A stretch of DNA of 64,000 bases from Limnobacter humi (GTDB lineage: Bacteria; Pseudomonadota; Gammaproteobacteria; Burkholderiales; Burkholderiaceae_B). The notes under the pieces are model-generated. The model made no database searches. It saw nothing but the letters and a program-made list of their open reading frames with translations, and was not told the DNA's origin. Positions within the stretch are counted from its first letter, which is position 1; each line of letters opens with the position of its first letter. The translations under genes and the position numbers were made by a program. The DNA is taken from assembly GCF_024518835.1 (NCBI RefSeq), contig NZ_JANIGO010000003.1:186001-250000 (forward strand). The letters are read 5' to 3'. Positions 3,885 through 8,947 of the stretch are shown piece by piece.

Positions 3885-5066
3885 TCAGGCTGCGCGCTGC
3901 TGGAGGATTTCAACAGCAGGCAGGGTTTTGCCTTCCAGAAACTCCAGGAATGCACCACCACCGGTGGAAATGTAGCTGACCTGTTCGCTGATGTTGTATT
4001 TGGCAATGGCGGCCAGGGTGTCGCCACCACCGGCAATCGAGAATGCCGACGATGCGGCGATGGCACGCGCCAGGCGCTCGGTGCCATGGCCAAACTGGTC
4101 AAACTCGAACACACCGACCGGGCCATTCCACACAATGGTGCCAGCGTTTTGCAAAATGGTGGACAGGCCTTCGGCAGTCTGCGGACCAATGTCAAAAATC
4201 ATGTCCGTGGCCGACACATCTTCCACCTTTTTGGTGGTGGCCACCGCGGATGGGCTGAATTCGCTGCCCACCACCACATCCACCGGGATGGGCACTGCGG
4301 CACCCCGGGTTTTCAGTTTCTCGATGATGGACTTCGCCTCACCAATCAGATCAGCTTCGACCAGGGACTTTCCGATGGGCAAACCCACCGCAGCCATGAA
4401 GGTGTTGGCAATGCCGCCACCCACAATCAACTGGTCCACCTTTTCAGCCAGGCTATTGAGAATGGTCAGTTTGGTGGACACTTTGGAGCCAGCCACAATC
4501 GCCACCAATGGGCGCTTGGGTGCAGACAGGGCCGCACCCAATGCATCCAGCTCTGCCGCCAGCAGGGGGCCCGCGCAGGCCACTTTGGCAAACTGGGCAG
4601 CCCCATGGGTGGTGGCCTCAGCCCGGTGGGCGGTGCCAAAGGCATCATTCACATAAATGTCGCACAGGGCCGCAATTTGCTTGGCCAAGTCCGGGCTGTT
4701 CTTTTTCTCGCCTTTGTTGAAACGGCAGTTTTCCAGCAACACCACTTCACCAGCAGACACACTGACGCCGTTTACCCAGTCTTTGACCAAACGAACGTTT
4801 CGACCCAACAGTTCACCCAGGCGCTTGGCCACGGGGGCCAGGCTCAGCTTCTCGTCGTACTCACCCTCGGTGGGGCGGCCAAAGTGGCTGGTTAGCATCA
4901 GGGCGGCATTGTTTTTCAGGCAGTATTCAATGCCGGGCAGGGAGGCGCGAATCCGGGTGTCTTCGGTGATGTTGCCGTCGGCATCCACGGGAACGTTAAA
5001 ATCAACCCGAATGAGTACACGTTGATTGGATACGGCTTGATCGGTCAGACGCAGGAAACGCAGCAT
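3885..5066 (-). CDS. pgk: Phosphoglycerate kinase
   Basis: A 393-residue phosphoglycerate kinase (1,3-bisphosphoglycerate + ADP to 3-phosphoglycerate + ATP). The reading frame stays open upstream to 5213, but the ATG at 5066 gives the family N-terminus [10 protein letters not shown] followed by [11 protein letters not shown], so I take that start. Other motifs are [35 protein letters not shown], and the nucleotide-binding GGGDTLAA and [13 protein letters not shown] at the C-terminus. It is the first gene of the pgk-pyk-fba operon and is divergent from the rhombosortase gene, with 27 bp between the two starts. Confidence 0.96.
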
Positions 5067-5093
5067 CGCTTGAACACTCGCAAGGAAGGTTGA

Positions 5094-5732
5094 TTGAAAA
5101 CAATCCTGAATTATAAACCGCCCAAGCCCTTGCTCACCGTGTGGGCACTCTGGTTTGCCGTGGCTTTGTGCGCACTGGTCGCCCAATTGGCCTGGGGCCC
5201 AGTTCAAGGGCAAGGTCTTGATTTATCGGAGTCATTTTTTCTGAACACCTTGCTGGGTCAATTCGTGCACCTGGGCTGGGTGCACTTGGCGCTGAACCTG
5301 CTCGGCTTGGCTGTGGTGTTGTGGGGTTTTGAACGAACGGTTAGCCCGGTTACTTTGTGGTTTGGCCTAGGGTGGGGGCTATTGACCGTGCCCCTTTATT
5401 TGACCTGGGTGGAGCGTCTGGACTGGTATGTGGGGCTCAGTGGCGCCCTGCACACCGCGTTCGTGGTTGGGTTGCTGCACGCCTGGCGCCATTGGTTCGC
5501 AGCGCGCGCTGCACAAAGCACCCCGCCATCGCCGCTGCCTTTGCTCCTGCTCACAGCAGGTTTACTGGCCAAATTGGTGTTGGAAGCAAAACAGGCATCG
5601 ACCGGATTACCGATTGATGCCTGGGTGGGCGGGCATGTTGCCATTCAAGCCCACCGGGGGGGAGCCCTGGCAGGCCTGCTGGCCTATGTTGCGCGGGTGC
5701 CTGTTTTAGCCTGGATTGGTCGCCGACGGTAG
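5094..5732 (+). CDS. rrtA: Rhombosortase (GlyGly-CTERM-specific rhomboid-family serine protease)
   Basis: A 212-residue, strongly hydrophobic protein with about six membrane segments. Rhomboid-type catalytic features are visible: [10 protein letters not shown] (residues 59-68) matches the HxxxxHxxxN motif of the second segment, GLSG holds the predicted nucleophile Ser116, and AHRGG holds the predicted catalytic His187. The short length and these motifs fit the rhombosortase subfamily rather than a housekeeping rhomboid. Translation appears to begin at TTG 5094, directly after an in-frame stop and behind an AAGGAAGG ribosome-binding site; there is no ATG nearby. Its neighbour, convergent and overlapping by 49 bp, is an exported protease with a GlyGly-CTERM tail, the predicted substrate. 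Confidence 0.82.
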
Positions 5733-7669
5733 AGCATCATGGCACTGGCCAGCATCAGCAAACCCGACAAGCCAAGGCCACCACCACCGCCGCCACCGCC
5801 GCCTCCCGAGGAGACAGGGGTTGTTGAGCCCGTGCTTTGGGGCGTGGTTGAACCCATGCTGGCCGGTGCACTGCTGCTATCGCCACTGGCCACAACACGA
5901 ACCGCTGTGAAAGTGCTGCGGCTCTCGCCCACCGAGTCGGTCACCGTGAGCTTGAACACCAGGTCGGATGTGCTGTTGGCCGCTGGCAAATCCACATCGG
6001 CTGTGCTGCGGGTGCCCGTTAACACGGGTGTGCCAGACACCTGTTCCCACAAATACGACGCAATGGTGCGACCCGACAGTGCAGTGCTGGAAGAACCGCG
6101 CAACAGCACGGGGTTGGAGGCGCTGGCACTTTCCTGGGGAGCAGTCCCGTTGTAAGAACTGGTACCCAGTCCATTGGCCGTCACCGACGCGTTGGCCAAT
6201 GGTTTGGTGCCTCGAATGGAATTGACCGCAGCATAGGCATCCAGCATGCCAGTGCCACACACAGCCGTGGTGCAATTGCAGGTGGCAAACCCTGAATTGG
6301 CCGAGCAGGTTTGACCCGATGGCGACAGAAATGGCGCAGTGGTGCTGGTGATGGCCGACGCAATTTGAGTGGGGGTCAGTGCCGAGTTCACGGCTTTTAT
6401 CAAACCAGCCGTGGCTGCCACCAGGGGCGCGGCAAAGGAAGTTCCGGTTTTGGACACCAAGGTAGATGCGCCTGGGGTGGTGGTGCCTGAATTGCCCAAA
6501 CCGACCAAGCCATAGTAATAACCACCTGGTGCCATCAAGGCAACGCCGGTGCCCAAGGCGCTGTAATAGGCTCGACTGCCATCGCGGTCGATGGCCCCCA
6601 CACCCATCACACCGCTGCAATTGGCGGGTGAATCCACCACGCCGCCCCCATTACCGGCGGCCGCAACCACCAGGGTCCCAGCCGCAGTGACGCGGTTGAC
6701 CACATCCTGCTCCAGTGAGCTGCACGTGTTGGCACTGCCCAGGCTAAGGTTGATGACAGCCGCAGGGTTGGTATTGCGGGGAACACCGGGTACATCCAGG
6801 CCGGCAGACCACAGCATGGCATCCAGCACATCCGACAAGTAACCACCGCACTTGCCCAGCACGCGCACCGGCAAAATTTTCACGTTCCAGTCAGCACCCG
6901 CGATATCGGCACTGTTGTTGGTATTGGCGGCAATTTCACCCGCCACAAAAGTGCCGTGCCACGAGGAATCCTTGACTGAACAACCAGCAAAGGGACCCGA
7001 CTGGGATTCGGCGGAAGTGATCCAGTTTCCAGGGTCAGCGGGGTTGGCATCACGTCCATCACCGTCATTGGCTGTGTTCACATCGGACACGAAGTCATAA
7101 CCTGAAAGCAGGCGGCCAGCCAAGTCTGGGGTTTCGAACACCACGCCGGTGTCGAGCACCGCAATCACCACGTTTGAGCTGCCTTTGATCAAATCCCAAG
7201 CCAGGTTGAACTTGGCACCGCCCCGCCCGCTGGTGCTCTGCAAGTGCCATTGGTTGGTGTAAGTGCTTTCATTGGGCGTGGCCTGAATACGAACAGGCCG
7301 ATCCTGCATGACCAAGTCCACATCCGGATCGCTGGACAGGCGGTTCAACAACGACTGAACATCCGACGGTCGAACCGATGGACCAAAGCGCATGACATGT
7401 GTACCCACCGTACCAGCACGCACCCAGGTGGCATCGACCCGGTTGCGGGTCATCACAGCAGACAATGATTCGCCGTCTTTTTCCAGGCGACGCACACTGG
7501 GTGTGGCACCCAGCTCGACTGAGTTTTTCAGTTTGATGATGAACTGCGTGCCGGCGGCTTGCTGGGCGTGGGCGGTGCCGGTCATCACCAGACAGGCCAG
7601 AAACAGGGCCAACAGGGCATTGGCTTGATTCCGGATGGAACGGAAATTGGCTGAGCAGATTGTCAACAT
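5684..7669 (-). CDS. Secreted S8 (subtilisin-like) serine protease with GlyGly-CTERM sorting tail
   Basis: A 661-residue preproprotein. Residues 1-35 form a signal peptide ending in TAHA, with an inhibitor-type propeptide from about 40 to 130. The S8 catalytic triad is visible as Asp173 (AVLDTGV), His238 (SWHGTFVAG) and Ser411 (TGTSFAAP), with the oxyanion Asn340 (AAAGN). A PKD-like domain spans about 485-595, followed by a Ser/Thr-rich linker, a run of ten glycines (622-631), a hydrophobic stretch [15 protein letters not shown] and YRRR. Gly run, membrane segment and basic cluster are the GlyGly-CTERM tripartite tail recognised by rhombosortase, encoded next door. The chosen ATG at 7669 starts the signal peptide; the open frame extends to 7726. 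Confidence 0.9.
   Translation of the reverse strand: MLTICSANFRSIRNQANALLALFLACLVMTGTAHAQQAAGTQFIIKLKNSVELGATPSVRRLEKDGESLSAVMTRNRVDATWVRAGTVGTHVMRFGPSVRPSDVQSLLNRLSSDPDVDLVMQDRPVRIQATPNESTYTNQWHLQSTSGRGGAKFNLAWDLIKGSSNVVIAVLDTGVVFETPDLAGRLLSGYDFVSDVNTANDGDGRDANPADPGNWITSAESQSGPFAGCSVKDSSWHGTFVAGEIAANTNNSADIAGADWNVKILPVRVLGKCGGYLSDVLDAMLWSAGLDVPGVPRNTNPAAVINLSLGSANTCSSLEQDVVNRVTAAGTLVVAAAGNGGGVVDSPANCSGVMGVGAIDRDGSRAYYSALGTGVALMAPGGYYYGLVGLGNSGTTTPGASTLVSKTGTSFAAPLVAATAGLIKAVNSALTPTQIASAITSTTAPFLSPSGQTCSANSGFATCNCTTAVCGTGMLDAYAAVNSIRGTKPLANASVTANGLGTSSYNGTAPQESASASNPVLLRGSSSTALSGRTIASYLWEQVSGTPVLTGTRSTADVDLPAANSTSDLVFKLTVTDSVGESRSTFTAVRVVASGDSSSAPASMGSTTPQSTGSTTPVSSGGGGGGGGGGLGLSGLLMLASAMMLYRRRPIQAKTGTRAT
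5775..5807 (-). repeat. Trinucleotide (GGN) run coding the glycine tract of the S8 protease tail
   Basis: Ten consecutive Gly codons (mixed GGA, GGC, GGT) on the minus strand form the glycine spacer of the sorting tail. Mixed third bases make replication slippage less likely than in a pure repeat, and any slippage would change glycine number without a frameshift. Confidence 0.7.
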
Positions 7670-7936: not shown

Positions 7937-8947
7937 TTACTTCGCGTTCATCAGGGCCACAGTGGTGTCGAGCATGCGGTTGGAGAAACCCCACTCGTTG
8001 TCGTACCAGCTGGACACTTTCACCAGCTTGCCGCTCACCTTGGTCAGCGTTGCATCAAAGGCGCTGGAGGCTGGATTGTGGTTGAAGTCGATGGACACCA
8101 AGGGTGCGTCGTTGTATTCCAGCACGCCTTTCAGCGGGCCTTCAGCGGCTGCTTTCAGGATGCTGTTCACTTCCTCAACGGTGGTGTCGCGCTTGGCCAC
8201 AAAGGACAAATCCACCATGGACACGTTGATGGTGGGCACACGCACAGCGTAGCCATCCAGCTTGCCATTCAACTCGGGCAGCACCAGGCCAACCGCAGCA
8301 GCCGCACCGGTTTTGGTGGGGATCATGCTCATGGTGGCGGAGCGCGCGCGGCGCAGGTCTTCGTGGTACACGTCGGTCAGCACCTGGTCGTTGGTGTAGG
8401 CGTGAATGGTGGTCATCAGACCGGTTTCCAGACCGATGGCATCGTTCAGGGGCTTGACCAGCGGGGCCAAACAGTTGGTGGTACAAGAAGCATTGGAAAT
8501 CACGGTGTCGGTGCTCTTCAACACTTGGTGGTTCACGCCAAACACCACCGTGGCATCCACGTCCTTGCCACCCGGGGCGGAAATGATGACTTTCTTAGCG
8601 CCGCCTTTCAGGTGGGCAGATGCTTTTTCCTTGGAAGTGAAGAAGCCAGTGCATTCCATCACCACGTCCACACCCAACTCGCCCCAAGGCAGTTCAGCCG
8701 GGTTGCGGTTGGCCAGCACCTTGATTTTGTCGCCATTGACCACCATGTAGTCGCCATCCACGGCAACGGTGCCAGGAAAACGGCCATGGGCTGTGTCGTA
8801 CTGGGTCAGGTGGGCGTTGGTCTTGGGGTCGCCCAAGTCGTTGATGGCCACGATTTGAATATCGTGCTTTTTACCACCTTCGTAATGGGCACGCAGCACA
8901 TTACGGCCAATACGGCCGTAGCCGTTGATCGCGACGCGAATAGTCAT
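7937..8947 (-). CDS. gap: Type I glyceraldehyde-3-phosphate dehydrogenase
   Basis: A 336-residue NAD(P)-dependent GAPDH that oxidises glyceraldehyde-3-phosphate to 1,3-bisphosphoglycerate. It shows the N-terminal Rossmann motif [14 protein letters not shown], the catalytic-cysteine motif [13 protein letters not shown], and the C-terminal [15 protein letters not shown]. The frame is open to 9067, but ATG 8947 gives the exact family N-terminus [11 protein letters not shown] and is preceded by a strong AAGGAG ribosome-binding site, so that start is used. It lies 25 bp downstream of transketolase on the same strand. Confidence 0.97.

What the first reader, a model, noticed from the sequence alone, without database searches (positions are those of the whole stretch)
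5094..7669. Rhombosortase encoded next to its likely GlyGly-CTERM substrate protease
The 661-residue S8 protease ends with ten glycines, a hydrophobic stretch and YRRR, the GlyGly-CTERM tail pattern. The facing gene encodes a short rhomboid with [14 protein letters not shown] (Ser116) and AHRGG (His187). Known biology: rhombosortases cleave GlyGly-CTERM tails, best studied in Vibrio for type II secretion substrates. A one-to-one dedicated pair would make a compact sorting module for one secreted protease.
Basis: partly seen in the sequence, partly recalled or inferred. Interest (0 to 1): 0.72.

Follow-up and report, generated by a model that had tools for sequence, protein, structure and literature searches.

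The report
Limnobacter rhombosortase beside its tailed protease
A membrane-embedded cutting enzyme and a secreted protease carrying the tail it probably cuts lie side by side, end to end, in Limnobacter bacteria; this fills a gap left open when the enzyme family was first described, but the kind of system is already known.

Summary
Window 5094-5732 (+) encodes a 212-aa rhomboid; facing it, 5684-7669 (-) encodes a 661-aa S8 protease ending in ten Gly, 16 hydrophobic residues, RRR and 11 more. The genes overlap tail-to-tail by 49 bp. The genus is Limnobacter. All 16 Limnobacter genomes searched carry this rhomboid as their only detected rhomboid, and 14 of 16 keep the overlapping pair. It scores 80.6-81.2 bits against rhombosortase model TIGR03902 (cut-off 84), missing the formal line, but falls in the rhombosortase clade and has the diagnostic SGxLH. 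Limnobacter sp. MED105, listed by Haft and Varghese (2011) as having a GlyGly-CTERM protein but no rhombosortase, has it at 80.7 bits. The pair is not one-to-one: a tail model built only from the neighbour proteases finds two to four tails in 14 of 16 genomes and, outside the genus, only one in G027, which has the rhomboid too. Poly-Gly replaces the Vibrio SGGS, and the L1 WR motif is lost. Most likely the rhomboid cuts the tail and the protease is lipid-anchored and exported by type II secretion, as in Vibrio. Known kind, divergent variant.

The parts
5094..5732 (+). rhombosortase-type rhomboid protease, 212 aa, TTG start after AAGGAAGG; the only rhomboid detected in the genome
   Evidence: tree
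5439..5453 (+). SGALH: catalytic Ser116 and His120, the His that marks rhombosortases
   Evidence: signature described in PMC3237569 section 17
5652..5654 (+). catalytic His187 (AHRGG)
   Evidence: invariant in 18 of 18 rows of A2
5684..7669 (-). S8 (subtilisin-like) protease, 661 aa, with a signal-peptide-like start (by eye) and a GlyGly-CTERM-like tail
6338..7177 (-). Peptidase_S8 domain (residues 165-444)
   Evidence: 158.5 bits
5894..6118 (-). K319L-like PKD domain (residues 518-592)
   Evidence: 43.5 bits
5777..5806 (-). run of ten Gly, the predicted cleavage region
5729..5776 (-). hydrophobic stretch [16 protein letters not shown] with the GL dipeptide at P5'-P6' (P6'-P7' if P1 is the ninth Gly)
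5720..5728 (-). basic cluster RRR of the tail; on the other strand 5721-5729 encodes the RRR that ends the rhomboid
   Evidence: sequence
5684..5719 (-). 11-residue C-terminal extension [11 protein letters not shown] plus stop, inside the overlap
5684..5732 (.). 49-bp tail-to-tail overlap of the two coding sequences
3885..5066 (-). pgk (phosphoglycerate kinase), conserved neighbour, divergent from the rhomboid gene
   Evidence: name from recall
7937..8947 (-). glyceraldehyde-3-phosphate dehydrogenase gene, conserved neighbour on the far side of the S8 gene
   Evidence: name from recall

Best explanation
This is the Limnobacter form of the rhombosortase / GlyGly-CTERM system. The S8 protease is exported by its signal peptide and held in the inner membrane by its C-terminal hydrophobic tail. 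The rhomboid (Ser116/His187) cuts near the end of the poly-Gly run, the new C-terminal Gly is joined to a phosphoethanolamine-type lipid group, and the protease leaves through the type II secretion system to sit on the cell surface. The same enzyme serves further tailed hydrolases in the genome, so it is a few-to-one system in which one substrate gene has stayed as the neighbour. Shown here: genes, motifs, clade, co-occurrence, tail register, and a GspD secretin in every Limnobacter genome searched. Inferred from Vibrio cholerae work: cleavage, lipid joining, surface display. The poly-Gly site and the changed L1 loop suggest a cleavage preference different from Vibrio RssP.
For: TIGR03902 is the only NCBIfam hit for the window rhomboid; 16 of 16 Limnobacter genomes hit at 66.1-85.0 bits. 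In the tree of 87 rhomboids, Limnobacter is one clade (99*) inside the 75-row rhombosortase side, and 12 generic rhomboids form the other side (support 87). His120 in 16 of 16 Limnobacter, against 0 of 12 generic rows. Only one rhomboid detected in each of 16 genomes (PF01694, E up to 0.001). GspD over cut-off in 16 of 16 (not specific: 45 of 80 genomes in all). Tail model A6, made from the 15 neighbour tails only, matches 15 of 16 Limnobacter genomes and 1 of 64 others; that one is G027, which has the rhomboid. Of its 45 Limnobacter matches 30 are not rows of the model. Neighbour tails, found by gene order: P6' Gly 14 of 15, P7' Leu 15 of 15; VesB, cut after G383, has G389 and the required L390 at P6' and P7' (distances counted by me). 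Conserved synteny. G027 has the same rhomboid locus and three S8 proteases with Gly-rich tails on other contigs.
Against: The window protein misses the curated TIGR03902 cut-off by about 3 bits; 1 of 16 Limnobacter proteins passes. TIGR03501 does not see the window tail and passes its cut-off in 1 of 16 Limnobacter genomes; seven other genomes of the 80 pass it, none with a rhombosortase-class protein (G062 has a 53.5-bit TIGR03902 match with GASGAVF) (those matches not inspected, probably chance for a 22-position model). WRxxS/T in L1 is absent in 16 of 16. VesB changed to Gly at P3 or Ala at P1' is inactive in V. cholerae, yet the Limnobacter tails have Gly at P3 in 31 of 31 and Ala at P1' in 19 of 31. 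Of G027's three tails only one has Leu at P7' (by eye). VesB's needed Pro (P12') is not conserved: 0 of 31. The tails run 3-22 residues past the first basic residue in the 30 of 31 tails that the script could measure; Haft and Varghese describe 0-5 past the helix. G002 shows no tail. The tree is a quick one with long-branch warnings and no AU test. No cleavage was shown.
Confidence: 0.82

Rival explanations
1. The tail is an ordinary C-terminal membrane anchor, and the rhomboid is a housekeeping GlpG-like protease that happens to lie next door.
For: Gly-rich linkers before hydrophobic anchors are common (recalled); the rhomboid score is below the equivalog cut-off, and TIGR03501 gives no hit to the window protease.
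Against: Generic rhomboids form a separate side of the tree; SGxLH kept in 16 of 16 Limnobacter; fixed Gly/Leu/basic register in neighbour tails and unrelated hydrolases; conserved neighbourhood; tail matches of model A6 occur in 16 of 80 genomes, all 16 with the rhomboid.
Confidence: 0.08
2. The rhomboid is a diverged rhombosortase that cuts the tail to release a soluble protease, without lipid joining or surface retention.
For: Poly-Gly site and lost WR motif differ from the Vibrio pair; in the passages read, the lipid group is reported for VesB and the joining enzyme is not settled.
Against: Only indirect: GspD is present and the tail architecture matches. Nothing here tests the lipid step.
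Confidence: 0.1
3. A strict one-to-one dedicated pair.
For: Adjacency is typical of genomes with a single target (PMC3237569 section 15); one Limnobacter genome (G011, 65% complete) shows a single tail by model A6.
Against: Two to four tails in 14 of 16 Limnobacter genomes by model A6, three in the window's genome, where a fourth, atypical one was found by other models.
Confidence: 0.03

Closest known systems
Rhombosortase RssP with VesB and other GlyGly-CTERM proteins of Vibrio cholerae (PMC6219818 abstract and passages; PMC11389362 abstract and sections 6-8; PMC13393428 abstract and discussion)
   Same: Rhomboid with Ser/His dyad; Gly-rich motif, hydrophobic helix, basic end; Leu at P7' and mostly Gly at P6'; serine-type protease cargo; type II secretion secretin present.
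   Different: Poly-Gly with Gly at P3 and mostly Ala or Ser at P1' instead of SGGS; no Pro at P12'; L1 WR motif lost; no GlpG detected; substrate gene adjacent and overlapping; longer C-terminal extension.
Adjacent rhombosortase/GlyGly-CTERM gene pairs of Haft and Varghese 2011 (PMC3237569 abstract, sections 8, 14, 15, 17 and passages), including the exception Limnobacter sp. MED105
   Same: Target and protease genes side by side.
   Different: There adjacency was typical of single-target genomes and, apart from Comamonas testosteroni and Cupriavidus metallidurans, not seen with several targets; here several tails coexist with adjacency. MED105 was listed with no rhombosortase; its orthologue is found here at 80.7 bits.
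Convergent pairs in other Pseudomonadota: G078, Burkholderiaceae MAGs L104 and L108, Derxia lacustris L100, Steroidobacteraceae MAG L063
   Same: Rhomboid next to a Gly-tailed protein gene, tail-to-tail; overlaps of 25, 57 and 51 bp in G078, L104 and L108.
   Different: L100 and L063 have gaps of 44 and 182 bp; gene context beyond the pair not examined.
Myxosortase/MYXO-CTERM (PMC11980579, search listing and start of abstract only)
   Same: Intramembrane protease and tripartite C-terminal tag.
   Different: Invariant Cys in the tag motif, which the window tail lacks.

Membership tests
Rhombosortase (TIGR03902) | score at or above the curated cut-off of 84 bits | tested here: not met
   80.6 bits as protein, 81.2 from the genome; the orthologue in G015 scores 85.0
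Rhombosortase (TIGR03902) | falls in the rhombosortase clade, apart from generic rhomboids | tested here: met
   Limnobacter on the 75-row side, support 87, 12 generic rows on the other; quick tree, SH-aLRT only; the 57 reference rows were chosen by the pattern WYxGLSGALH
Rhombosortase (TIGR03902) | His four residues after the catalytic Ser (SGxLH) | tested here: met
   16 of 16 Limnobacter; F, S, M or gap in 12 of 12 generic rows
Rhombosortase (TIGR03902) | WRxxS/T motif in loop L1 | tested here: not met
   0 of 16 Limnobacter have WR; 45 of 57 reference rows do, so it is not universal
Rhombosortase (TIGR03902) | catalytic Ser and His, oxyanion His and Asn (the latter roles recalled) | tested here: met
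   S116, H187, H64, N68 invariant in A2, 18 of 18 rows
Rhombosortase (TIGR03902) | co-occurs with GlyGly-CTERM tails | tested here: met
   model A6: 15 of 16 Limnobacter and G027; G002 not shown, its S8 gene runs off a contig end
GlyGly-CTERM (TIGR03501) | score at or above the cut-off of 15.5 bits | tested here: not met
   window protease: no hit at E up to 10; two other proteins of the genome score 17.3 and 16.3
GlyGly-CTERM (TIGR03501) | Gly motif without Cys, hydrophobic stretch, basic cluster at the C-terminus | tested here: met
   but 11 residues follow RRR
GlyGly-CTERM (TIGR03501) | cleaved by rhombosortase | not testable with these tools
   needs experiment
GlpG | matches a GlpG model better than the rhombosortase model | tested here: not met
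   no GlpG model hit for the window protein at E up to 10; TIGR03902 is the only hit

The most novel reading that the evidence does not exclude
Limnobacter and its kin have a co-diverged rhombosortase/tail pair: an enzyme without the L1 WR motif that cuts poly-Gly tails (Gly at P3, Ala at P1') which the Vibrio enzyme's measured preferences would reject, working as the cell's only rhomboid without GlpG as back-up, with the substrate tail and enzyme C-terminus encoded on opposite strands of the same DNA.
Probability: 0.35. Interest if true: 0.55.

Novelty: new variant of a known kind. Interest (0 to 1): 0.4.

Why it matters
Limnobacter sp. MED105 was one of four genomes that the founding paper listed with a GlyGly-CTERM protein but no rhombosortase; its orthologue sits here about 3 bits below the model's line. 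The curated models pass in only 1 of 16 Limnobacter genomes each, so annotation by those cut-offs would miss nearly the whole genus. Because it is the only rhomboid detected, Limnobacter offers a test of rhombosortase without GlpG, which in Vibrio cuts the same substrate as a back-up. The poly-Gly tails and changed loop also give a natural case for asking what sets cleavage preference.

Tried and rejected
TIGR03501 as a tail counter was given up because it passes in 1 of 16 Limnobacter genomes and in seven of the others. I made a tail model A3 from 17 tails. A3 had faults: its rows were typed by hand and 6 of 17 were not exact apart from the Gly run; it contained non-neighbour tails; it gave 4 weak matches among 64 non-Limnobacter genomes (E 0.003-0.04), around which no Gly-rich C-terminus was found by the script's pattern; and it missed real tails of G015 and G027. 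Counts in this report are from A6 unless said otherwise; both are lower bounds. One-to-one pairing was rejected, and so was GlpG membership.

I considered whether the overlap is a fixed coding feature: overlap lengths are 27, 35, 44, 47 (nine genomes), 49 and 67 bp in 14 Limnobacter genomes, in all three phases, so I treat it as a by-product of compact packing; how often convergent genes overlap in this genus was not measured. WR loss as a Limnobacter hallmark was weakened: 12 of 57 reference rows also lack it. In one search the script's motif pattern picked the wrong site in some rows (for instance GFSGQRS); alignment A2 shows GLSGALH there.

Rows dropped: the tree left out L045-L057 (Limnobacter loci, mostly copies of genomes already in) and L059, L075, L076, L082, L087, L092, L098, L099, L112 and L114 (copies or near-copies, chosen by eye); 12 of 15 generic loci were used (L168 and L169 gave no suitable ORF, L173 no motif). 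The register count uses 31 Limnobacter tails, 16 of them found with tail models, which favours a shared register; the 15 neighbours, found by gene order, are counted apart. Two G015 tails and three G027 tails, and the A6 matches first seen, are not in either count.

Full report
Observation. The window holds a 212-aa rhomboid at 5094-5732 (+) and a 661-aa S8 protease at 5684-7669 (-), as described. Pfam Rhomboid covers residues 56-198. The protease has an S8 domain, a PKD-like domain, a Ser/Thr/Gly-rich linker, ten Gly, 16 hydrophobic residues, RRR and 11 further residues. The coding sequences overlap tail-to-tail by 49 bp. The Arg triplet that ends the rhomboid (5721-5729) and that of the tail (5720-5728) lie on opposite strands of nearly the same bases.

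NCBIfam gives TIGR03902 (rhombosortase) as the only hit to the rhomboid, 80.6 bits against a cut-off of 84 (81.2 from the genome). TIGR03501 (GlyGly-CTERM) does not hit the window protease at E up to 10, although it hits two other proteins of the genome at 17.3 and 16.3 bits, over its cut-off of 15.5. Taken alone, this is a near miss on one side and a miss on the other.

Which organism. G006 is Limnobacter sp. MED105: a 1-kb piece of its locus was found in NZ_ABCT01000013.1.

A published exception. Haft and Varghese 2011 (PMC3237569; abstract, sections 8, 14, 15 and 17, and passages) list MED105 with one GlyGly-CTERM protein and no rhombosortase. Here MED105 has the rhomboid at 80.7 bits, next to a Gly-tailed S8 protease, and two further tailed proteins, one found by each tail model (G006:C43, G006:C46). 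Which of them carries their accession 149927708 was not determined. In the held library only that paper holds both 'limnobacter' and 'rhomboid'; the 21 papers with 'rhombosortase' and 20 with 'glygly-cterm' were seen as listings, and of these I opened five, one of them (PMC5300114) for passages only, with no mention of Limnobacter.

Is it a rhombosortase? Formally not by the cut-off, which 1 of 16 Limnobacter proteins passes (G015, 85.0 bits) and 2 of 80 genomes pass in all. By descent, yes: in a quick tree of 87 rhomboids the 16 Limnobacter rows are one clade (99*) on the rhombosortase side, 12 generic rhomboids of the order on the other (support 87). The output warns of long branches, and no AU test was run. 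The His after the catalytic Ser, which the founding paper found to mark rhombosortases, is present in 16 of 16 Limnobacter and 0 of 12 generic rows. For the 57 named reference rows that His was part of the search pattern, so they do not count as a test. Two results against: L1 WR is lost in 16 of 16 Limnobacter (45 of 57 reference rows keep it), and G078, which scores 100.9 bits, has Tyr in place of the His. It is the only rhomboid detected in each of 16 Limnobacter genomes (PF01694, E up to 0.001). Of 32 other genomes of the family searched, 30 show no rhomboid, one (G023) a generic one and one (G027) this type.

Are the tails a real, shared signal? Model A6, made from exact sequences of the 15 neighbour tails, matched 15 of 16 Limnobacter genomes at E up to 0.05 and 1 of 64 others; that one, G027 (E 0.003), also has the rhomboid. 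It made 45 matches in Limnobacter, 30 of them not rows of the model. G078, which has a rhombosortase-type protein and a Gly-tailed neighbour, was not matched, nor was G002. An earlier hand-typed model, A3, gave 31 Limnobacter matches, 17 of them its own rows, and 4 weak matches in the 64 others. Of the 16 non-neighbour tailed proteins then fetched whole, ten were scanned: eight are Peptidase_S8, two PAF-acetylhydrolase-like hydrolases.

Tail register. With the last Gly of the run taken as P1, the 15 neighbour tails, found by gene order, have Gly at P6' in 14, Leu at P7' in 15 and Arg/Lys at P18' in 14. All 31 tails of five groups (my grouping) give 29, 30 and 28 of 31, but 16 of these were found with tail models. 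Eight tails outside the genus, found by a loose pattern, give Leu at P7' in 7 and Gly at P6' in 1; the three of G027 give Leu at P7' in 1 (by eye). In VesB, cut after G383, the residues at P6' and P7' are G389 and L390; L390 is needed for RssP processing, G389 is not. The rows are related, so they are not independent events. The window's own tail is one residue out of register unless P1 is the ninth Gly of its run. The tail on G000 contig 25 is atypical (Glu and Cys at P6' and P7').

How many tails per genome? By A6: G001, G008, G009 and G013 four; G000, G003, G004, G005, G010, G012, G014 and G015 three; G006 and G007 two; G011 (65% complete) one; G002 none. G000 has a fourth, atypical one by A1 and A3. 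These are lower bounds. G027 has three Gly-tailed S8 proteases, of which A6 found one. G002's S8 homologue runs off the end of its contig. So the system is few-to-one, not one-to-one.

Neighbourhood. Fourteen of 16 Limnobacter genomes keep the rhomboid and S8 gene tail-to-tail with overlaps of 27-67 bp; in G011 the S8 ORF is split and a 111-bp gap remains; in G002 no S8 gene follows. pgk flanks the rhomboid in 15 of 16 (in G014 the contig ends first). The GAPDH gene lies beyond the S8 gene in the window and in 11 of 15 relatives; it was not found in the stretches held for G015, G009, G011 and G002. In G027 the order is pgk, rhomboid, GAPDH without S8. Among 67 further named loci (L058-L124), six hold a Gly-tailed gene by the script's pattern (L063, L100, L104, L108, and farther off L109 and L115), all convergent with the rhomboid; 61 hold none within the flank. 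G078 is convergent too, with a 25-bp overlap. The founding paper reports adjacency mainly for single-target genomes; 'opposite strand' does not occur in it and 'convergent' refers to evolution (12 of 14 places shown).

Mechanism. From V. cholerae (PMC6219818 abstract and passages; PMC11389362 abstract and sections 6-8; PMC13393428 abstract and discussion): the tail is cut after the second Gly, the end carries a glycerophosphoethanolamine-type group, type II secretion delivers the protein to the surface, and GlpG can cut elsewhere as a back-up. Limnobacter has GspD over cut-off in 16 of 16 genomes (45 of 80 genomes in all; other secretion genes not tested) and no GlpG was detected. I infer the same course. 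Difference to test: VesB with Gly at P3 or Ala at P1' is inactive (Table 1; the table prints '>1' for such values, which I read as below 1; Ala at P1' is S384A), yet Limnobacter has Gly at P3 in 31 of 31 and Ala at P1' in 19 of 31. Either the enzyme's preference differs, or a poly-Gly run offers other cutting registers.

Verdict. The finding is real and the family call is right in substance, short of the formal cut-off. The pairing claim is wrong in its one-to-one form. What is new is modest: an explanation for a published exception, a divergent poly-Gly variant, sole-rhomboid status, and conserved overlapping convergent genes.

Noticed in passing
L030 (G027), 4863-5549: Another genus of the family keeps the rhomboid between pgk and the GAPDH gene without the S8 gene, while three S8 proteases with Gly-rich tails lie on other contigs.
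   Followed up: partly
L104, 911-5968: A Burkholderiaceae MAG has two Gly-tailed protein genes in a row, the first overlapping the rhombosortase-type gene by 57 bp.
   Followed up: no
L067, L068, L072, L077, L080, L081, L089, L107: A gammaproteobacterial MAG clade of rhombosortase-type proteins; rows of this look also lack the L1 WR motif (LL or WL instead), apart from Limnobacter in the tree. Which rows lack it was not matched one by one.
   Followed up: no
L041 (G078), 4369-4959: The best TIGR03902 scorer of the relatives (100.9 bits) has SGALY rather than SGALH, so the marker His is not universal even above the cut-off.
   Followed up: no
PMC3237569 Tables 2 and 3: Chromobacterium violaceum is listed as having no rhombosortase in one table and as 'distant' in the other.
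   Followed up: no
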